Source: a virus. From it: a stretch of 39,119 nucleotides of DNA. The notes beneath the pieces were generated by a model, which did not search any database, had not been told where the DNA came from, and saw nothing but the letters and a program-made list of their open reading frames with translations. Positions 20,593-29,748 of the stretch are shown one piece after another. A program made the position numbers and the translations under genes. The first letter of the stretch is position 1; each line of letters opens with the position of its first letter. Location of the stretch: the IMG/VR virus record IMGVR_UViG_3300025671_000174, positions 1 through 39,119 of that record; one strand, 5' to 3'.

Positions 20593-22005
20593 ATGACCCA
20601 GCCCCAAGAAAACCCGTTTATCAAGTTAATGGCGCGCTACCGCGACGACCCCGTTGCCTTCGCCCGCGAGGTAGCCGGCATTGAGCCGGACGAGTGGCAA
20701 GTTGAGCTCCTCGACGCCGTCGCAGCCCCCGCGATACGGCGTGTCAGCGTGCGTTCTGGCCACGGCGTCGGGAAGTCCACGGCGGTCGCTTTGGCGGCTG
20801 TATGGCACGTTCTGATGCGCGTGCCGAGCAAGACCGTTGTGACCGCCCCCACGTCGTCCCAGCTTTTCGACGCCTGCTTCGCTGAGATGAAAAATGTCGC
20901 CAAGCGGCTGAAGCCGCCCTTTGACAATTTGCTGGAGCTCAAGTCTGATCGGATTGAGTTGAAGAGCCACCCAGAGAGCACGTTTATATCGTGCCGCACG
21001 TCGCGCGCGGAGCAGCCGGAGGCGCTCGCTGGGGTTCACTCGCCTTCGGTGCTTTTGATTGCCGACGAGGCCAGCGGTATCCCCTCCAGCGTCTTCGAGG
21101 CCGCGTCTGGCAGTATGTCTGGCCACTCTGCGACGACGATCCTGACCGGCAACCCCACGCGGAATACGGGTTTCTTTTACGACACGCACAATCGCCTACG
21201 TGACGACTGGTACACGATGCATGTGTCTTGCGTGGATAGCCCGCGTGTGAGCGAGGATTTCGTAGAGGATATGAGGCGTCGGTACGGGGAAGACAGCCCC
21301 GCCTATCATGTGCGCGTCTTGGGCAACTTCCCCCCGTCAGAAGAGGACACGGTGATACCTGTTTCGCTTATTGAGCATGCCATGGCCAACGACATCAAGG
21401 TGCATGAGGACACGATTGCCATATGGGGCTTGGACGTCGCGCGTCAGGGCGGCGATGCCAGCGTTTTATGCAAGCGTCAGGGGCCGGTGATACATCCGCT
21501 GACTGTGTGGCGCAACTTGGACCTGATGCAGCTTACGGGCGCCGTGAAGGCGGAGTATGATGCCATGCCGCCGAGTAAGCGGCCGGCGGAGATCATCGTG
21601 GATAGCAATGGCTTTGGCGCTGGAGTGCTCGACCGCTTGCGCGAGCTTGGCCTGCCGGCGCGTGGTTTGAACGTGTCGGAGCGCGCCATGGCGAAGGACA
21701 CGTATTTGAACTTGCGCGCGGAGATCTGGTTTAAGATGAAGATGTATCTCGAAGGCATGGACGTGTCACTGCCGCGCGACGATGCGCTGTATGCGGAGCT
21801 TGCGGCGCCGCGGTACCACTTTACCAGCGCGGGCAAGCTGCAAGTCGAGAGCAAGGATAGCATGAAGAAGCGCGGCGTTGCGTCGCCTGACAGGGCGGAT
21901 GCGGTGGCGTTGTCGCTTGCGAATGATCACACGACCATGGCGTTTGGAACGAGCGCCGCGGGATCTTGGAATAAGCCGCTGCGTCGTGGTTTGAGCGTGG
22001 TTTAG
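20593..22005 (+). CDS. terL: Terminase large subunit
   Basis: A 470-residue protein. The ATPase part has Walker A SGHGVGKST (residues 55-63) with the preceding Q-motif region DEWQVELLDAV, and Walker B SVLLIADEASG near residue 154, followed by the coupling motif TTILTGNPT. The nuclease part begins with WGLDVARQGGDASVL (first Asp) near residue 280, continues with EIIVDSNGFGAGVLDRL, and ends with SPDRADAVALSLA (third acidic site). It pumps DNA into the procapsid through the portal and cuts it at the end. The length is usual for the family. The start is taken at ATG 20593. Confidence 0.95.
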   Translation: MTQPQENPFIKLMARYRDDPVAFAREVAGIEPDEWQVELLDAVAAPAIRRVSVRSGHGVGKSTAVALAAVWHVLMRVPSKTVVTAPTSSQLFDACFAEMKNVAKRLKPPFDNLLELKSDRIELKSHPESTFISCRTSRAEQPEALAGVHSPSVLLIADEASGIPSSVFEAASGSMSGHSATTILTGNPTRNTGFFYDTHNRLRDDWYTMHVSCVDSPRVSEDFVEDMRRRYGEDSPAYHVRVLGNFPPSEEDTVIPVSLIEHAMANDIKVHEDTIAIWGLDVARQGGDASVLCKRQGPVIHPLTVWRNLDLMQLTGAVKAEYDAMPPSKRPAEIIVDSNGFGAGVLDRLRELGLPARGLNVSERAMAKDTYLNLRAEIWFKMKMYLEGMDVSLPRDDALYAELAAPRYHFTSAGKLQVESKDSMKKRGVASPDRADAVALSLANDHTTMAFGTSAAGSWNKPLRRGLSVV

Positions 22006-22780: not shown

Positions 22781-23932
22781 ATGGGTAAGGTAGAGCAGGC
22801 AATACGTGGCGCAGGCAGCTTATTAGACTTTGTCATCAAAGGGTCCGACTATTTTACGCCGCCGCGAACCGGTACTAGTCGTGCAAAAGATCCTGCGCTC
22901 TATAGCCCGTTTTCCATGGTTAAGCATAAAAACGCCCCTTATAATTATGTTGTGAAGGGGCAGCAATTATCAGACCAGCTTATACCGCCTTCAGTGATTG
23001 ATCCCGCAAGTCTTCTTGGAAAGACGATGTCTTTTGCGACAGGCGACCGTACATCTAATCAGCGCATGATTGACGAAGTAAACGAATATCTTTTGAGAAA
23101 CCGCCCGCTTACCTTCGGGGGTCCAGAATATATGGATCAGATTATGCGTGGCGCATGGGCGTCGGAAAAGAACCCCATGAAAGCCAAGGCGAATGCGTTG
23201 AAGGGAGTTTCTGATCTAGATAACATACTTGCTTATATGCCAATGAGTGAAAGATCCGGCGACTTTTCGCGCCATATGGCGGAAGTGTACGGAGATATGC
23301 TTTCGTCCAGTGGAAATTTAAACAACTTTAGGGCTAACGCCAAAAAAATTGACGAAGTTTTACGTGATCGTTTTCCAAGTGTTAAAAACATGCCAAGCAT
23401 CGCAGACCCGACGTTCCCTGACTGGCTTGCAAATCAAAAGGGCGGACGGCGCGCTCAGTTTATAAAGTTTTTCGATAGCAATAAGATGCGCGAGCTTGGC
23501 GTCCCTGACGTGGCCGCAGCGCGCTTTGCGGTGACAAATCCTGACTTGATGCTTTCAGACACTGCAAGCGTAGGATACAGGTTCGCAACGCCCAAAAAGG
23601 GCGCCGACATTGTCATCTCAGACGATCACCCGTCATACAACGCACTTTTACCCCGCGAGGAGGGTTCAAAGTCAATGACATTTGGCTTTGAAGTGCCATA
23701 TACAATCGGCGCTCGTGACACGGCGTTACCTAAAGCGGCAAAGACTGGAACAATCTTAGCCCAGCCAAAAGACGTCAAGTCGTATATGGGCAACCCAAAT
23801 TTACGTCAATTCATCGACCAGCAATTTGTGGACGAAGTAAGCACATATGGCGACTACCTCAAGCGTCACGGTAAAAAACGTGCCGACGAGTATGCAACAA
23901 GCCTTTTAAGACGTTTTATGAGTTCGCAATGA
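22781..23932 (+). CDS. Polyvalent-protein-type accessory protein, unknown activity
   Basis: A 383-residue protein. Residues ~200-265 (PSIADPTFPDWLANQKGGRR ... FFDSNKMRELGVPDVAAARFAVTNPDLM) and the following 'GYRF...YNALLPREEGSKSMTFGFEVPYTI' match, from memory, a region that recurs in large 'polyvalent' proteins of phages and conjugative elements. Those proteins are delivered into hosts with DNA. No nuclease or protease triad is visible. Its position between terminase and portal, together with the ART-like gene, suggests a packaged or capsid-linked effector (inference). It overlaps by 17 bases the 3' end of a small minus-strand gene. Confidence 0.55.
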   Translation: MGKVEQAIRGAGSLLDFVIKGSDYFTPPRTGTSRAKDPALYSPFSMVKHKNAPYNYVVKGQQLSDQLIPPSVIDPASLLGKTMSFATGDRTSNQRMIDEVNEYLLRNRPLTFGGPEYMDQIMRGAWASEKNPMKAKANALKGVSDLDNILAYMPMSERSGDFSRHMAEVYGDMLSSSGNLNNFRANAKKIDEVLRDRFPSVKNMPSIADPTFPDWLANQKGGRRAQFIKFFDSNKMRELGVPDVAAARFAVTNPDLMLSDTASVGYRFATPKKGADIVISDDHPSYNALLPREEGSKSMTFGFEVPYTIGARDTALPKAAKTGTILAQPKDVKSYMGNPNLRQFIDQQFVDEVSTYGDYLKRHGKKRADEYATSLLRRFMSSQ

Positions 23933-24062
23933 GATCCTTAATTTCCTCAATCGTGTCATCGATCATCTCTTGGATCTCTTCGGGTAGATCCTCTGGGCTC
24001 GTCCAGAGCATCATTACCGTCGCTTCGATACTGCGGCGAATTTGTTCCAGTTCCTCGCTCAT
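23916..24062 (-). CDS. 48-residue acidic helical protein, opposite strand
   Basis: Read leftwards from ATG at 24062 to TAA at 23916-23918: MSEELEQIRRSIEATVMMLW, then TSPEDLPEEIQEMIDDTIEE and IKDLIANS. GGAGGAAAAG directly precedes the start on the minus strand, a strong ribosome site. Strongly acidic, probably two helices. It overlaps the convergent gene by 17 bases and is divergent from the ART-like gene. No family recognised. With the gene at 8560-8739 it forms a second case of a tiny well-initiated gene inverted between late genes. Confidence 0.65.
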   Translation of the reverse strand: MSEELEQIRRSIEATVMMLWTSPEDLPEEIQEMIDDTIEEIKDLIANS

Positions 24063-24114: not shown

Positions 24115-25398
24115 TTGGCAACCCTAGACCCATACTGGCGCACGCAGCAATCTGAACGGCAAGCTCAGCTTAATCAAGCTGACTTGGATGCGTGGAACGA
24201 GATGCAAGTCGAAGAAGGCTTACGAGAGCTTGATGAATGGAGACGCCAGCGTCAGGGAACGATTGAAGCCGCGCCGCCTCCGAGCTTTACCGAGAAGGTG
24301 CGTCGCGGGTTTACAAGCCTTCTGGACACGGCTGGCATGTCTCCCTACATGGCGCGCCGCACCAGCGAAGGCATATTTGGCCGTCCGTTTGCGCGTCCTC
24401 AGTCTGAGCTTGGCTTCATTGAGGAAATGGGAGCCTTTCCCGCTGTTGCCTCTGTTCTTAGACCAGCTTTGATGGCGGGCGTTTCTGGCATCGAAGCCCT
24501 TCTAGCTTCTGCTCGCGGCGAGCGCGGAAAGGCGTTGGGATACGCTGGCTTGGGGCTTCTGGAAGCCTCTGGCGCAAAGGGTATGAATAAATACATTAAT
24601 GCAGACAAGCCAGACATATTGGGCTATTTAAAATCGCGTAACGAAACCCTTGACGTCAATCCGGCGGCGTTGTTGCCACGTCGTTCCAGCGACGACATCT
24701 CGTATGAGGACGCTTATCACTTTATGAAGAGCAACAAGATGATAGGCGATAAACTCATGCCGCCCTCAGAGGGTGCGCGGTTTGATCGTCTGGGTGTTCA
24801 CGTTGGCACGCCAAGGCAGGCGGAAGACAGGTTTTTCGCAAAACACGGCGTCTCAGGACATAAAAATCTTAAAGAAGTTTGGGATGCGGTGGGGCTGTAT
24901 GGAGACAGCGGCGTGACGCAAGGGCTCAAGGTGAGAACAGAGAAGCCTTTTGAGATAAAAGACTTTGAAGATTTCGGGATCAATAAGGAATTTTTAGAAG
25001 ACCCTCTAAATACCGAAATAATTGACGGAAAAACTGTTTTATCTGAAGAGGGCGTTATAGACGCAATGAACGCATATGCCGATAATAAGGGGGTCGGACT
25101 AGACGAGGGTCTTGCTCTATTCAAAAAAGAGCTAACGGACAAAGGATACACCAACATTCCATATGTCAATAGAATTGAGGGCATAAAGAGGAGCGACGTT
25201 GGAAGTAAAGACTTTAAATACACGCCAGAAAACATAAGCAACGTCATGCTTGTGGAGCGTACCGCCGCAGATCCCGAAGTTATTAGAAGCAGGTTTGCAG
25301 CTATGAAAGATCCATATGCTCAATCAATTATGGCGTCGGGTTTACTTGGCGCTGTAATAGGTCAAAACGCAAACAGTCAACGTGGCTCACAGTATTAA
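24115..25398 (+). CDS. Candidate ADP-ribosyltransferase-like (ART-PolyVal type) virion protein
   Basis: A 427-residue protein from a TTG start (no better ATG at this end; its ribosome site is weak). Residues 8-19 (WRTQQSERQAQL) are almost identical to a segment of the scaffold protein. Residues ~50-165 are basic then hydrophobic/glycine-rich. Residues ~205-410 follow the order I know for ART domains of polyvalent proteins: FDRLGVHVGTPRQAEDRF, then GLKVRTEKPFEIKDFEDFG, then ELTDKGYTNIPYVNRIEG, then ISNVMLVERTAADPEVIRSRF. If real, it would modify host targets with ADP-ribose after delivery. The catalytic H-Y-E set is not clear, so activity may be lost. Confidence 0.55.
   Translation: MATLDPYWRTQQSERQAQLNQADLDAWNEMQVEEGLRELDEWRRQRQGTIEAAPPPSFTEKVRRGFTSLLDTAGMSPYMARRTSEGIFGRPFARPQSELGFIEEMGAFPAVASVLRPALMAGVSGIEALLASARGERGKALGYAGLGLLEASGAKGMNKYINADKPDILGYLKSRNETLDVNPAALLPRRSSDDISYEDAYHFMKSNKMIGDKLMPPSEGARFDRLGVHVGTPRQAEDRFFAKHGVSGHKNLKEVWDAVGLYGDSGVTQGLKVRTEKPFEIKDFEDFGINKEFLEDPLNTEIIDGKTVLSEEGVIDAMNAYADNKGVGLDEGLALFKKELTDKGYTNIPYVNRIEGIKRSDVGSKDFKYTPENISNVMLVERTAADPEVIRSRFAAMKDPYAQSIMASGLLGAVIGQNANSQRGSQY
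24136..24171 (+). repeat. 36-bp segment shared with scaffold gene, copy 1
   Basis: Positions 24136-24171 match 28312-28347 at 34 of 36 bases, in the same reading frame. Both encode WRxQQSERQAQL (11 of 12 residues equal). Identity at DNA level suggests copying by recombination rather than convergence. Confidence 0.85.
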
Positions 25399-25407
25399 GA
25401 GGCAAAG

Positions 25408-27528
25408 ATGCAGAACGAAATAAATCAACTTGTGAGCGCCCTCGAAGAAGAGCTCGAACCAAACGTAATGGGCGACGACGAGCTACAGGGCATCGTCGGC
25501 AAGGAAATCGAAGACGCGATTGACTACTCCGACAATTGGGTGTCGCCATATCGCGCCACGGCAACCGAGTATTATCGCGGCGACCCGTTTGGCGACGAGG
25601 AAGAGGGCCGCAGCCAAGTGGTCAGCATGGACGTGCGGGATACCGTACAGGCTATCATGCCGTCGCTGATGCGGATATTCCATAGCACCGACCGCACGGT
25701 GGAATACGCGCCGCAGGGGCCGGAAGACGTTGCCGCGGCGAAACAGGCGACCGAGTACGCAAATTACATCATCAACCGTGACAACAACGGCTTCTTGCAT
25801 ACGCACGCCGCGTTCAAGGACGCACTGATCCGCAAGGTGGGCGTGCTAAAGTGTTATTGGGACGATCAGACGAAATTCGAGACACACGACCTCACGGGGC
25901 TCGACGATAACGCTCTGGCGGCGTTGATGTCAGATCCGGCGGCGGAAATTGACATCCTCGCCTCCGAGCCGTTTGGCGAGCCCTCAATGGACCCCATGAC
26001 CGGCGAGATGTTACCGCCCGCCATGATGCACGCCGTGCGCGTAACATATACGCACCCAGATGGCCGCGTGAAGCTGGAAGCGGTGCCGCCCGAAGAGTTC
26101 CTTATATCGCGCGAGGCGAAGTCCCTTGAAGACGCCGATTACGTTGCGCACCGGCGCATTTTGACCGTCTCCGAGCTTGTGGCGATGGGCTACGACTACG
26201 ACGAGGTTGTGAAAATGTCTTCGGCGCATGAAGACATGGCGACGAACATTGAGCGCACCACGCGAAACCGCGCGCTGAATAACGAGATGAACGAACGCCA
26301 CGATCCCGCGATGAAGAAGGTGCTTTATGTCGAAAACTACATCAAAGTTGACTACGACCAAGACGGCATCGCGGAGTTGCGTAAAATCTGCACCGCCGGC
26401 GACGGCAACAAGATCCTTATGAACGAGCCGTGCGCGATAGTTCCGTTTGCGACGTTCTGCCCCGACCCAGAGGCGCACGACTTCTATGGCATGTCCACCG
26501 CGGATGCGGTGATGGACATCCAGCGGATCAAGTCTTCAATTATGCGCAACACATTGGATAGCTTGGCGATGTCAATTCACCCTAGAGTTGCAATCGTCGA
26601 GGGCATGGTCAACATCGAAGACGTTATGAACAACGAAGTCGGCGCCATCATTCGGCAGCGCGCAGCCGGCCAAGTGCAGCCAATGTCCATGCCATTCGTT
26701 GGCCAACAGGCGTTTCCTGTTCTGCAATACATGGACGAGATCAAAGAGGCCCGCACGGGCATTTCAAAGGCGTCTGCGGGCTTGGATGCCGGCGCCTTGC
26801 AGTCATCCACCGCGTCGGCTGTACAGGCCACTGTCAGCGCCGCTCAGCAACACATAGAGCTTATCGCGCGGATCTTTGCGGAAACCGGCATGAAGCAGTT
26901 ATACAAGATCGTGCTTCACCTGATCACAACGCATCAAGACCGGCCACGTATGGTTCGGCTGTCCAATGAGTTTGTGCCGATTGATCCGCGCGTTTGGAAC
27001 GCCGACATGGATGTCAGCATCAACGTCGCGCTTGGCCGCGGCACCGACACCGAGCGCATGATGATGCTGCGCCAGATCGCGGACATGCAGAAAGAGGCGA
27101 TGGCCACTATGGGGCCGGTCAATCCGCTTACCGATATGGCTAAACTATCGAACACGTTGAAGGCAATGACGGAGCTTGCCGGCTTCAAGGATGCGTCGCA
27201 GTTTTGGTCAGATCCGGCGCAGTTCCAGCCTCCACCACAAGAGGACAAGCCGGACATCAACGAGCAACTCATCGCCGTTCAGATCCAACAGATCCAAGCT
27301 GACATACAGAAGAAGGCGGCAGAGTTGCAGCTTGAACGTGAAAAGATGATCATGGAAGACGACCGCAAGCGCGACGAGCTCGACGCCGAGCTCTTTGTGA
27401 AGGCGGAGGAGATGCAAGCTAAATATGGCACGCAACTCAACGTCGAGAAGATACGATCAGACTTGGCGATTAACCGCGAAGTCATGAGAGCGCAAGCGGA
27501 CGTCATCAAAGGATCTATTGATGACTAA
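25408..27528 (+). CDS. Portal protein, P22-like
   Basis: A 706-residue protein, close to P22 gp1 in length (about 725). The N-terminal region EIEDAIDYSDNWVSPYRATATEYYRGD ... VVSMDVRDTVQAIMPSLMRIF is the hallmark start of this portal family. The centre (FCPDPEAHDFYGMSTADAVMDIQRIKSSIMRNTLDS) is the wing/crown region. Residues ~600-706 are a long charged coiled coil (QIQQIQADIQKKAAELQLER...), as in the portal barrel. Twelve copies form the ring through which DNA enters and leaves. It lies upstream of scaffold and coat as expected and overlaps the next gene by eight bases. Confidence 0.9.
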   Translation: MQNEINQLVSALEEELEPNVMGDDELQGIVGKEIEDAIDYSDNWVSPYRATATEYYRGDPFGDEEEGRSQVVSMDVRDTVQAIMPSLMRIFHSTDRTVEYAPQGPEDVAAAKQATEYANYIINRDNNGFLHTHAAFKDALIRKVGVLKCYWDDQTKFETHDLTGLDDNALAALMSDPAAEIDILASEPFGEPSMDPMTGEMLPPAMMHAVRVTYTHPDGRVKLEAVPPEEFLISREAKSLEDADYVAHRRILTVSELVAMGYDYDEVVKMSSAHEDMATNIERTTRNRALNNEMNERHDPAMKKVLYVENYIKVDYDQDGIAELRKICTAGDGNKILMNEPCAIVPFATFCPDPEAHDFYGMSTADAVMDIQRIKSSIMRNTLDSLAMSIHPRVAIVEGMVNIEDVMNNEVGAIIRQRAAGQVQPMSMPFVGQQAFPVLQYMDEIKEARTGISKASAGLDAGALQSSTASAVQATVSAAQQHIELIARIFAETGMKQLYKIVLHLITTHQDRPRMVRLSNEFVPIDPRVWNADMDVSINVALGRGTDTERMMMLRQIADMQKEAMATMGPVNPLTDMAKLSNTLKAMTELAGFKDASQFWSDPAQFQPPPQEDKPDINEQLIAVQIQQIQADIQKKAAELQLEREKMIMEDDRKRDELDAELFVKAEEMQAKYGTQLNVEKIRSDLAINREVMRAQADVIKGSIDD

Positions 27529-27786: not shown

Positions 27787-28785
27787 ATGTCAGAAGCCAA
27801 CACCCCGTCACCACTTGGGATTGATCTGAACACTGCACAAAATGCCATCAGGGCCATGATCGCCCCCGAAGAGGATACTGCGAAGACCACTGAGGCGCTT
27901 GAGGCTGAACCGACTGAACAGGTCGATGATGCCGAAATGCCGGAAGATGACGCCTCATATGAGGAATATTCTGAAGGCGAGCTTGAAGTTGAAGCGGAAG
28001 CTGAAGAACAGGACGACCAATCCTTTGACATACTTGGCGCATTAGTCGAAGTAGACGGCGAAGAGATTACAGTCGAAGAGTTACGACGCGGAAACCTGAG
28101 ACAGAAAGATTATACGCGAAAGACGCAGGAACTTGCCGAAACTCGAAAGCAGTATGAGGCACAGTATTCTGAGCTTGAGCGTGAGCGGGCACAATACGCT
28201 CAGCTATTGCCTGCATTGCAGCAACGGCTGGAGCAACCGGCAGAAAGAGAGCCAGACTGGGACACGCTGTACGATACAGACCCCACCATGGCAGCGAAAG
28301 CAGAACGTCAGTGGCGCAAGCAGCAATCTGAGCGGCAAGCTCAGCTTGAGGCGGTGCAACAGGAGCAGGCAAGAATGGCGCAGATACAGCAACAGCGCAT
28401 GCAGCAAATGCAGGCACAGTATGTTGATCAGCAACGCGAAGTCTTACCTGATCTGATACCCGAATGGCGCGACAGTAAAGTCGCGGCAAAAGAGGCGACA
28501 GAATTGCGTGATTTTCTCTTGGAAGAGGGATTTACGGAAGAAGACGTCAGCGGGCTGGCCAATGCATCACTTGTTAAACTGGCCAGACAGGCCATGCTTT
28601 ACAGTCGAGGTCAAACTCGCGCGACGCAGGCGAAAGCCAAGCCGAGGCCGAAAACCAAGACAATGAAGTCAGGATCGCGCGGATCTCAGCCGAAACCCAG
28701 AGCCCCTCAAGAGCAAGCGCTCCAGCGCGCACGTCAAACTGGCCGCGTCGATGACGCCGCGGCTGCAATTAGATCTCTTTTGTAG
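27787..28785 (+). CDS. Capsid scaffolding protein
   Basis: A 332-residue protein. Residues ~20-85 are very acidic (EEDTAKTTEALEAEPTEQVD ... EEYSEGELEVEAEAEEQDD). Residues ~115-225 are a Gln/Glu/Arg-rich coiled coil (ETRKQYEAQYSELERERAQY ... QQQRMQQMQAQYVDQQRE). The C-terminal 40 residues are basic (KAKPRPKTKTMKSGSRGSQP), which in scaffolds binds the coat protein. The place immediately before the coat gene confirms the role: it guides coat assembly and leaves or is degraded before packaging. It also holds the WRKQQSERQAQL segment (residues 176-187) shared with the ART-like protein. Confidence 0.85.
   Translation: MSEANTPSPLGIDLNTAQNAIRAMIAPEEDTAKTTEALEAEPTEQVDDAEMPEDDASYEEYSEGELEVEAEAEEQDDQSFDILGALVEVDGEEITVEELRRGNLRQKDYTRKTQELAETRKQYEAQYSELERERAQYAQLLPALQQRLEQPAEREPDWDTLYDTDPTMAAKAERQWRKQQSERQAQLEAVQQEQARMAQIQQQRMQQMQAQYVDQQREVLPDLIPEWRDSKVAAKEATELRDFLLEEGFTEEDVSGLANASLVKLARQAMLYSRGQTRATQAKAKPRPKTKTMKSGSRGSQPKPRAPQEQALQRARQTGRVDDAAAAIRSLL
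28312..28347 (+). repeat. 36-bp segment shared with ART-like gene, copy 2
   Basis: Same segment as at 24136-24171, with two differences (28319 and 28332). It lies in the coiled-coil part of the scaffold gene, where Gln/Glu/Arg-rich sequence continues on both sides; this copy is therefore more likely the donor. Confidence 0.85.
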
Positions 28786-28794
28786 GAGGCCATT

Positions 28795-29748
28795 ATGGCA
28801 ATCGTAACCAACACATTTACCTCGCACAGCGCGGTAGGTATCCGTGAGAGTTTGGCGGACATCATTTCGTCCATCTCTCCAGAAGAAGTTCCATTCCAAA
28901 GTAACGTCGGATCTGAAAATGTTTCCAACACATACTTCGAGTGGCAGACTGACAGCTTGGCATCAACAAGCACAACGCCCGTCATCGATGGGGACGATGT
29001 ATCGTCTTTTGACGCGACGTCCGCAACGACCCGCGTCGGCAACTACACGCACATCCGTCGTCGTACAACCATTGTCGCTGACAACCTTGCCGCGCAAGAC
29101 CTTGCCGGCCGCAACGACGAATTGAGCTATCAAATCGCAAAACGCGGAAAAGAGCTCAAAAGGGATATAGAAGCTACCCTTACGGATAATAACGCTCAAG
29201 TTGCAGGCAACTCTTCGACTGCACGCGAAACGGGTGGCCTTGGTGCGTGGATTGCGACCAACGACAACCTCGCAGGCGACGGCGCGGCTCCGACTGGTAA
29301 TGGTACTGACGCCCGCACAGACGGTACTCAGCGCGACTTCACCGAAGCCATGCTGAAAGACGCAATGCAGCAAGCATTTGTCTCCGGCGGTCAGCCAAGC
29401 ATCCTCATGGTAGGACCACACAACAAGACGGTCGTATCAGGGTTTGCTGGTATCGCGGCTCAGCGTTACATGGCGCCAAGCGACAGCCCAACGACAATCA
29501 TTGGCGCGGCAGACGTATATATGTCTGATTTTGGGACCCTAAATGTGGTCGCCAACCGCTTTTCGCGTGAACGCGATGCGTGGCTGCTTGACCCAGAGTA
29601 TGCATCTGTATGCTACCTGCGTCCGATCCAGAACGTAGAGCTCAGCAAAACCGGTGACGCTTCCAAATCAATGGTTATCGCAGAATTTGGCTTAAAAATT
29701 CTCAACGAAGCGGCCCACGCCGTCGTGGCAGACCTCAACGTATCATAA
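28795..29748 (+). CDS. Major capsid protein, HK97 fold, DUF5309 (SU10 MCP) type
   Basis: A 317-residue protein. The start MAIVTNTFTSHSAVGIRESL followed by ADIISSISPEEVPFQSNVG, and the later 'RTTIVADNLAAQDLAGRNDELSYQIAKRGKELKRDIEATL', are the marks of the DUF5309/SU10-type coat proteins used by many marine short-tailed phages. 'AAQRYMAPSDSPTTIIGAADVYMSDFGTLNVVANRF' and 'WLLDPEYASVCYLRPIQN' form the C-terminal A-domain. It assembles into the icosahedral shell. A clear AGGAGG ribosome site precedes the ATG, and a terminator follows the gene, in line with high expression. Confidence 0.93.
   Translation: MAIVTNTFTSHSAVGIRESLADIISSISPEEVPFQSNVGSENVSNTYFEWQTDSLASTSTTPVIDGDDVSSFDATSATTRVGNYTHIRRRTTIVADNLAAQDLAGRNDELSYQIAKRGKELKRDIEATLTDNNAQVAGNSSTARETGGLGAWIATNDNLAGDGAAPTGNGTDARTDGTQRDFTEAMLKDAMQQAFVSGGQPSILMVGPHNKTVVSGFAGIAAQRYMAPSDSPTTIIGAADVYMSDFGTLNVVANRFSRERDAWLLDPEYASVCYLRPIQNVELSKTGDASKSMVIAEFGLKILNEAAHAVVADLNVS

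What the first reader, a model, noticed from the sequence alone, without database searches (positions are those of the whole stretch)
24115..25398. Candidate phage-delivered ADP-ribosyltransferase-like protein inside the packaging module
The C-terminal half follows the motif order of ART domains known from polyvalent proteins (LGVHVGTP, LKVRTEKPFEI, LTDKGYTNIPYVNRIEG, NVMLVERTAADPEVIRSRF). It sits between terminase and portal, not among early genes. That is the place for a protein carried in the capsid rather than made after entry. The full H-Y-E triad is not clear, so it may be an inactive or diverged form.
Basis: partly seen in the sequence, partly recalled or inferred. Interest (0 to 1): 0.75.

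Follow-up and report, generated by a model that had tools for sequence, protein, structure and literature searches.

The report
ADP-ribosyltransferase-fold protein encoded beside portal
An uncultivated phage carries, next to its DNA-packaging genes, a protein with an ADP-ribosyltransferase-type fold and an unusual, strictly conserved active site; many other uncultivated phages share it, and it may be an enzyme injected with the phage DNA to reprogram the host cell.

Summary
The ORF is real (24115-25398, 427 aa, TTG start) and lies between the terminase large subunit and an SU10-type portal gene. Its C-terminal half (residues about 188-405) is a domain with no Pfam or PHROG match. Profile searching found 153 relatives among uncultivated phages. 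An AlphaFold model (pLDDT 82, pTM 0.80) re-aligned to solved structures gives a list of ADP-ribosyltransferases (PARP2, ParT, MbcT, RES toxins, KptA, Arr); the best match is a cyanophage A4 ejection protein that carries its own ART motifs. All Z are below 8 and plain Foldseek found nothing. These residues are invariant in 47 aligned sequences under purifying selection, so 'degenerate' is unlikely. The site is H-H-T plus a conserved E, not H-Y-E nor the H-Y-D of ART-PolyVal. In 58 of 73 relatives the gene touches the portal gene, in phages with unrelated terminases, and the domain is swapped between different flanks. Packaging, injection and activity remain inferred. Verdict: a new variant of the known phage ART/polyvalent-protein theme.

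The parts
24115..25398 (+). ORF of 427 aa (TTG start); the C-terminal half is the ART-fold domain; the N-terminal half is unassigned
   Evidence: relatives share the same frame and start
24676..25329 (+). ART-fold domain, residues 188-405
   Evidence: AlphaFold model of residues 188-407 with a 47-sequence alignment, pLDDT 82.2, pTM 0.80; structural matches
24709..24726 (+). strand-1 motif DAYHFM, with H202 (bases 24718-24720), invariant 47/47
   Evidence: aligned by hhalign to the YHG[TS] motif of ART-PolyVal
24790..24834 (+). strand-2 motif LGVHVGTPRQAEDRF, with H229 and R239, invariant 47/47
24925..24957 (+). strand-3 motif LKVRTEKPFEI (L271 and P278 invariant)
25132..25182 (+). motif LTDKGYTNIPYVNRIEG, with invariant L340, G344, T346, P349, Y350, N352, E355
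25237..25299 (+). motif SNVMLVERTAADPEVIRSRFA, with invariant S375, M378, L379, R382, V389
22781..23932 (+). 383-aa partner ORF; a related domain is fused C-terminal to the ART domain in other phages and encoded next to it here; no Pfam or PHROG match
25408..27528 (+). portal protein, SU10 type, immediately downstream
   Evidence: PF23899 E 2.3e-209, phrog_1216 E 8.7e-166
20593..22005 (+). terminase large subunit
   Evidence: PF03237 E 3.7e-7 and PHROG terminase hits
27787..29748 (+). scaffold (27787-28785) and SU10-type major capsid protein (28795-29748)
   Evidence: phrog_3927 and PF17236

Best explanation
The ORF encodes a late protein whose C-terminal domain has the ADP-ribosyltransferase (ART) fold and belongs to a phage family, unnamed in the libraries searched, that is related to ART-PolyVal. 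It is made with the head and packaging proteins, is probably taken into the capsid near the portal, enters the host with the DNA, and uses NAD+ to ADP-ribosylate a host molecule (or consume an NAD-derived defence signal) in the first minutes of infection. Shown: the ORF, the gene order, the family, its invariant residues, purifying selection, and a confident ART-like model for the domain. Inferred: late expression (from gene order), NAD binding, catalysis by H202/H229 with E355 (or S375) as partner, packaging, injection, and the target.
For: Structure: model pLDDT 82, pTM 0.80. VIA-align of 373 of Foldseek's highest-ranked chains lists 21 entries with Z 2.7-6.6; 19 of 21 are ARTs by title plus known class (class partly recalled), and the other two are 9k3a (cyanophage A4 ejection protein, whose sequence in that range reads LYHGT...GSGTYFS) and 6kyf (an anti-CRISPR, recalled to be the ART AcrIF11). 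BFVD best E 8e-5; four of its nine best rows (ranks 6-9, E 0.006-0.012) are named ART-PolyVal-like. Profile: hhalign to 7 canonical ART-PolyVal domains scores 29.2, against maxima of 24.8 and 20.4 in 150+150 shuffles of the gap-trimmed alignments, in register with the YHG, GxYLT and NP motifs. Conservation: 19 invariant columns in 47 sequences; dN/dS 0.13-0.24 for the window against 4 relatives. Context: portal immediately adjacent in 58 of 73 loci, another terminase or head gene in the locus in 13, none recognised in 2. Portal adjacency occurs with three terminase types that BLAST does not relate (window, L046, L058/L064). Domain shuffling as in polyvalent proteins: the same domain C-terminal in the window, inside 710-711-aa proteins in L011-L015, joined to a PHROG 2579 domain in L025, in proteins up to 2025 aa. 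Precedent: LIMEstone1 ORF173, a PF18760 protein annotated as confirmed structural.
Against: No Pfam or PHROG hit for the protein; PF18760 not found in 4 family records even at E 10, and only 1 of 47 members rings it, at E 0.02, among other chance-level hits. Plain Foldseek against the PDB gave nothing below E 1 and no ART among the 50 rows listed; every VIA Z is below 8, which the tool calls middling. The Y/F and D of the H-Y-D site are H and T here. The A4 ejection protein is not matched by the family profile by sequence. In the L025 terminase group no portal was recognised beside the gene. No virion proteomics or isolate was found for this family: tblastn with P0001, L038, L092 and the L047 domain gave no relative among 50,697 phage records (only matches at E 4-5). 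In the untrimmed hhalign control 2 of 100 shuffles of the family alignment scored above the real value (up to 134.9); I did not explain these, and none of 150 did after gap-trimming.
Confidence: 0.5

Rival explanations
1. An active ART-fold enzyme that is not packaged: it is expressed late and acts in the producing cell (for example on host proteins or RNA, on head proteins, or to exclude other phages).
For: Gene position alone only suggests late expression; the authors of PMC9503650 themselves mention that such ARTs could counter immune processes aimed at packaging components (passage).
Against: Portal adjacency is kept in phages with unrelated terminases, and both the LIMEstone1 structural protein and the cyanophage A4 ejection protein match point to virion-borne ARTs.
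Confidence: 0.22
2. A catalytically dead ART-fold module used as an internal head or ejection protein, like the TASOR pseudo-PARP domain.
For: Two of the three residues of the H-Y-D site are replaced (Y to H229, D to T346); TASOR pseudo-PARP is among the structural matches (Z 3.9).
Against: H202, H229, R239, E311, T346, N352, E355 and S375 are invariant in 47 of 47 sequences that are as little as 23% identical to the window. A purely structural module would not be expected to keep polar residues so strictly.
Confidence: 0.15
3. The site works like the H-H-h clade of ARTs (KptA type): it acts on RNA or DNA ends or small nucleotides rather than on proteins.
For: KptA has YHGT and VH[LIM][ST] motifs with both H invariant in 7 of 7 sequences aligned; the window family has YH and VHVG. 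The clade definition is in a passage of PMC9503650; that KptA belongs to it and which strands its H occupy is recalled. KptA appears among the structural matches (Z 4.1 and 2.7).
Against: Profile comparison with KptA is not above chance (15.4; shuffles reach 25.0), unlike ART-PolyVal (29.2); KptA family PF01885 is not found in 8 family records.
Confidence: 0.18
4. The domain is not an ART; the model and matches reflect a common small alpha/beta arrangement.
For: No significant plain Foldseek or sequence match; Z below 8.
Against: The VIA list of 21 entries holds none that is clearly not an ART, the profile match is in register with the ART motifs, and four of the nine best BFVD rows are named ART-PolyVal-like.
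Confidence: 0.08

Closest known systems
ART-PolyVal (Pfam PF18760; ARTs of polyvalent proteins, Iyer et al. 2017, PMC5512222)
   Same: Phage-encoded, same order of motifs (YH strand 1, G-x-[YF]/H strand 2, NP/KP strand 3, GY), found in multidomain shuffled proteins and near head genes
   Different: Not detected by the Pfam model; H replaces the strand-2 aromatic residue, T replaces the D of GYD, and it has invariant Y350-x-N352-x-x-E355, R239, E311 and S375 of its own
KptA/Tpt1 (PF01885), H-H-h clade of ARTs
   Same: H in the first and second motif; structural match at Z 4.1 to a KptA entry
   Different: No profile similarity above chance; KptA is a stand-alone RNA-repair enzyme (recalled), not a gene beside the portal
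Cyanophage A4 pre-ejectosome protein (PDB 9k3a chain B; taken by me to be A4L_27 of Anabaena phage A-4L)
   Same: Best structural match (Z 6.6 over 136 residues); sequence 1418-1600 of A4L_27 reads as an ART domain (LYHGT, GSGTYFS); inside the capsid according to titles
   Different: 8% identity; a 1717-aa protein with a canonical YHG/GxYF pair; not matched by the window family profile by sequence
T4 Alt
   Same: Phage ART carried in the head and injected with DNA (stated in PMC5512222, passages read)
   Different: R-S-E clade, a different active site (same passages)
LIMEstone1 ORF173 (Dickeya phage, HE600015)
   Same: Stand-alone phage ART-PolyVal protein annotated as a confirmed structural protein
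   Different: Canonical YHG ... GFYLT ... GYD residues; no portal gene in the 8.2-kb region viewed

Membership tests
ART superfamily (fold) | ART fold in a confident model, with solved ARTs as structural neighbours | tested here: met
   pLDDT 82.2, pTM 0.80; 21 entries with Z 2.7-6.6, 19 ARTs by title or class plus 9k3a and 6kyf; all Z are below 8 and plain Foldseek was not significant
ART superfamily (fold) | NAD+ binding and ADP-ribosyl transfer or NAD hydrolysis | not testable with these tools
   needs purified protein
ART-PolyVal (PF18760, Tox-ART-HYD2) | match to the Pfam model above its cut-off | tested here: not met
   0 of 4 records at E 10; 1 of 47 members, E 0.02. Positive control: 8 of 8 phage records with canonical members pass
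ART-PolyVal (PF18760, Tox-ART-HYD2) | H in strand 1 | tested here: met
   H202, 47 of 47, strand 198-204
ART-PolyVal (PF18760, Tox-ART-HYD2) | Y in strand 2 | tested here: not met
   H229 in 47 of 47; the seven canonical members aligned show Y or F here
ART-PolyVal (PF18760, Tox-ART-HYD2) | D in strand 5 (I take this to be the invariant D of GYD) | tested here: not met
   T346 in 47 of 47
ART-PolyVal (PF18760, Tox-ART-HYD2) | profile relationship | tested here: met
   hhalign score 29.2 against a maximum of 24.8 in 300 shuffles of gap-trimmed profiles; 2 of 100 shuffles of A8 exceeded it in the untrimmed version
KptA / H-H-h clade | H in strands 1 and 2 | tested here: met
   H202 and H229 invariant, strands; KptA motifs
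KptA / H-H-h clade | sequence relationship with KptA (PF01885) | tested here: not met
   hhalign 15.4, below shuffles; PF01885 in 0 of 8 records
Phage polyvalent protein | several effector-like domains in one polypeptide, with shuffled architectures | tested here: inconclusive
   True of relatives (L011-L015 fused to the 383-ORF domain, L025 with a PHROG 2579 domain, up to 2025 aa); in the window the two parts are separate genes
Phage polyvalent protein | packaged in the virion and injected | not testable with these tools
   needs virion proteomics of a cultured relative; no isolate with the domain was found

The most novel reading that the evidence does not exclude
A new ART family, found in many uncultivated phages and in none of the isolates searched, that uses an H-H site with a conserved Y-x-N-x-x-E motif in place of the catalytic H-Y-D/E. 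It would be exchanged as a cassette between different virion proteins beside the portal, ejected with the genome, and act early on nucleic acid ends or NAD-derived nucleotides (an anti-defence activity) rather than on protein.
Probability: 0.2. Interest if true: 0.78.

Novelty: new variant of a known kind. Interest (0 to 1): 0.5.

Why it matters
Phage ARTs encoded near head genes are already proposed as first-strike effectors, but the known ones are recognised by H-Y-[EDQ], R-S-E or H-H-h signatures and existing models. This family is missed by Pfam and PHROGs, has its own invariant signature, and sits beside the portal in phage groups with unrelated terminases. If active and injected, it would add a large set of candidate virion-borne NAD-using enzymes from uncultured phages, and it gives a concrete set of residues to test.

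Tried and rejected
Direct look-ups failed: Pfam and PHROGs on the protein and relatives, tblastn against phages, PDB sequence searches (hits with no link to ARTs, E 0.03 or worse), plain Foldseek on the PDB (nothing below E 1; no ART by title among the 50 rows listed). The first AlphaFold job (full length, 13 rows) was useless (pLDDT 40) and was not interpreted. Two pattern-limited scans of bacterial genome contigs confirmed no relative. NCBIfam and PADLOC were not searched, nor plasmids or metagenome contigs.

Isolates: proteins L046, L080 and L058 match isolates through other parts; two of the L058 matches run into the start of this domain. A profile search of the regions fetched from CRP-207, HMO-2011, CRP-603, Burkholderia phages FLC10 and KS14, and A-4L found no copy of the domain (best E 0.6); the other isolates in those lists were not opened.

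KptA membership was considered because of the two histidines and rejected as a sequence relationship. The idea that the small minus-strand gene upstream is an antitoxin of the ART is not favoured: L004 and L005 have different ART variants (86% identical) but the same small protein, whereas L106 and L107 have ART proteins 97% identical with different small proteins. Pfam found nothing for the 383-ORF domain beyond one chance-level hit. PMC12002296 (cyanophage A4 paper) was not held, so only its title in a reference list was seen.

Rows dropped: of 80 loci kept, 73 were analysed; L039, L054, L041, L014, L083, L008 and L045 were left out by hand as near-identical or truncated copies. The 73 were reduced to 44 at 92% identity; A8 is these plus the window, L003 and L111. 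A9 uses 7 of the 8 canonical records; EspM4VN was left out.

Full report
Observation. Upstream lie the terminase large subunit (20593-22005) and a 383-aa ORF (22781-23932). Downstream lie an SU10-type portal (25408-27528), a scaffold, and an SU10-type capsid protein. The protein has no Pfam or PHROG hit and no tblastn match in 50,697 phage records.

Relatives. Fifteen IMG/VR loci encode relatives. Their C-terminal domain (residues about 188-405 of the window) is 67-100% identical to the window's, while the flanks change: in L011-L015 the domain sits inside 710-711-aa proteins with a different N-terminus, and where tested (L015, L077, L084, L023) it is followed by a domain matching the window's separate 383-aa ORF. 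Stepwise profile searches reached 153 relatives out of 189 candidate stretches, of which 80 loci were kept. Two pattern-limited scans of bacterial genome contigs confirmed none. Of the 80, 73 were analysed and 44 are non-redundant at 92% identity.

Conservation. In the 47-sequence alignment A8 (window included; down to 23% identity to the window) 19 columns are invariant: H202, G227, H229, R239, L271, P278, E311, L340, G344, T346, P349, Y350, N352, E355, S375, M378, L379, R382, V389. dN/dS of the domain between the window and four relatives is 0.13-0.24; against two more distant ones synonymous sites are saturated. The domain is under purifying selection.

Fold. A first AlphaFold job on the full protein with 13 rows failed (pLDDT 40). 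With A8 the domain folds with pLDDT 82.2 and pTM 0.80. H202 lies in the first strand (198-204), H229 in the second (228-231), T346 just before the strand 347-351, E355 in the loop after it, S375 in the strand 374-378. Plain Foldseek against the PDB gave nothing below E 1 and no ART by title among the 50 rows listed. VIA-align of 373 of Foldseek's highest-ranked chains listed 21 entries with Z of 2.7 to 6.6: the cyanophage A4 pre-ejectosome (9k3a chain B, residues 1418-1600), ParT, MbcT, RES toxins, PARP2, NatT, an anti-CRISPR (6kyf), KptA, TASOR pseudo-PARP, Arr, and three bacterial holotoxins. By title and known class (partly recalled) 19 of 21 are ARTs. 6kyf is AcrIF11, recalled to be an ART. 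The A4 protein, which I take to be A4L_27 of Anabaena phage A-4L because it is the only annotated protein of that record longer than 1600 aa, reads LYHGT...GSGTYFSKSSQAA in that range; the family profile does not match it by sequence, and the ART-PolyVal profile matches it only weakly there (E 0.04 for one sequence). All Z are under 8, which the tool calls middling; the weight lies in the uniformity of the list. In the viral structure library one match is below E 0.001 (8e-5, unnamed), and four of the nine best rows are named ART-PolyVal-like (E 0.006-0.012).

Motif assignment. Canonical ART-PolyVal domains from eight phage records all pass the Pfam cut-off; seven of them were aligned (A9; invariants include Y-H-G and G-Y-D). 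Profile-profile alignment of gap-trimmed A8 with A9 scores 29.2 (P 6e-4); the best of 150 shuffles of A8 was 24.8 and of 150 shuffles of A9 20.4. In the untrimmed control none of 150 shuffles of A9 reached the real score (maximum 19.8), but 2 of 100 shuffles of A8 did, with a score as high as 134.9, which I did not explain. The alignment sets YHF (H202) on YHG, GVHVGT on GxYLT, and KVRTEKP on RVRLNNP. Against the H-Y-D site of polyvalent ARTs (H strand 1, Y strand 2, D strand 5; passage of PMC5512222), this family keeps the H, has H for Y or F, and has T where GYD has D. The two-histidine pattern recalls the H-H-h clade (passage of PMC9503650), to which KptA belongs (recalled); KptA shows YHGT and VHLS-like motifs. 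But A8 against a KptA alignment scores only 15.4, within shuffles (maximum 25.0), while the positive control ART-PolyVal against KptA scores 33.3 and the unrelated 383-ORF alignment 13.9. The family is best placed beside ART-PolyVal with a changed active site. It is not a member of ART-PolyVal by the defining residues.

Context. In 58 of 73 loci (34 of 44 non-redundant) the gene touches a portal gene: 37 with the portal immediately downstream, 21 immediately upstream. In 13 more (8 of 44) another terminase or head gene is in the fetched stretch, and in 2 none was recognised. By best phmmer hit the terminases fall into five types; L058 and L064 types are related (29% identity, E 2e-71), the other pairs have no BLAST match better than E 0.005, although PHROG phrog_2 covers both the window type and the L025 type. 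Portal adjacency was seen with the window, L046, L058 and L064 types, not with the L025 type. PHROGs give terminase and portal for L058 and terminase for L064; the L064 downstream protein has no PHROG hit and is called portal only by phmmer to the session's portal queries. Isolates of the HMO-2011 group have a protein at the same place that shares other parts; the three opened (CRP-207, HMO-2011, CRP-603) lack this domain.

How it may work. A protein with an ART fold, encoded beside the portal and exchanged as a cassette between different polypeptides, fits a virion-carried effector. Precedents are T4 Alt and the polyvalent proteins (PMC5512222 passages), the survey finding that about 44% of phage ARTs lie in contexts suggesting head packaging (PMC9503650 passage), and the LIMEstone1 ART-PolyVal protein annotated 'confirmed structural protein'. 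The A4 match adds a case where an ART-like domain appears in a solved pre-ejectosome. Shown here: family, fold model, invariants, context. Inferred: NAD use, catalysis, packaging, injection, target.

Novelty. Eight paper searches listed no paper that, from titles and abstract starts, describes this family; they were not exhaustive, and only passages of PMC5512222, PMC9503650, PMC8946771, PMC11654794 and PMC12810830 were read. ARTs beside packaging genes are a known theme, so this is a new variant of a known kind rather than a new kind.

Noticed in passing
window 23916-24062, minus strand: A hidden 48-aa acidic gene on the opposite strand between the 383-aa ORF and the ART gene, with GGAGG before its ATG. 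A homologue at the same place in L103, L104, L107 and L112 is 49% identical in protein (23 of 47, L103) and 48% in DNA, with synonymous change saturated (pS 1.1) and pN 0.37, so it looks coding. Its variants do not follow the ART variants.
   Followed up: partly
window 22781-23932; L015, L023, L055, L073, L077, L084: The 383-aa ORF defines a domain without Pfam or PHROG match that is fused behind the ART domain in some phages and a neighbouring gene in others: a likely functional partner.
   Followed up: partly
L025 2708-4402: The same ART-fold domain is fused behind a PHROG 2579 domain ('ParB C-terminal domain', E 1.1e-26) whose motifs (YRAVP, GDWITLS, NEFGY) look like a second ART of the R-S-E type (recalled impression, not tested).
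   Followed up: no
L106 388-603, minus strand: A different small ORF occupies the slot of the 48-aa gene behind nearly the same leader sequence, as if small genes are exchanged there.
   Followed up: no
Anabaena phage A-4L, A4L_27 (L148 20116-25269, minus): Annotated 'tail protein', it carries ART-like motifs at residues about 1423-1600 and seems to be the cyanophage A4 ejectosome chain 9k3a_B. I could not check whether its authors noted this.
   Followed up: partly
L009 5162-5761; also L011, L012, L026: A roughly 200-aa ORF between terminase and the ART gene looks like a 2-oxoglutarate/Fe(II) oxygenase (recalled impression, not tested); not seen at that place in the window.
   Followed up: no
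L006 2288-3376: The ART ORF is frameshifted within the domain in this contig (362 aa instead of about 430); sequencing error or a real break.
   Followed up: no
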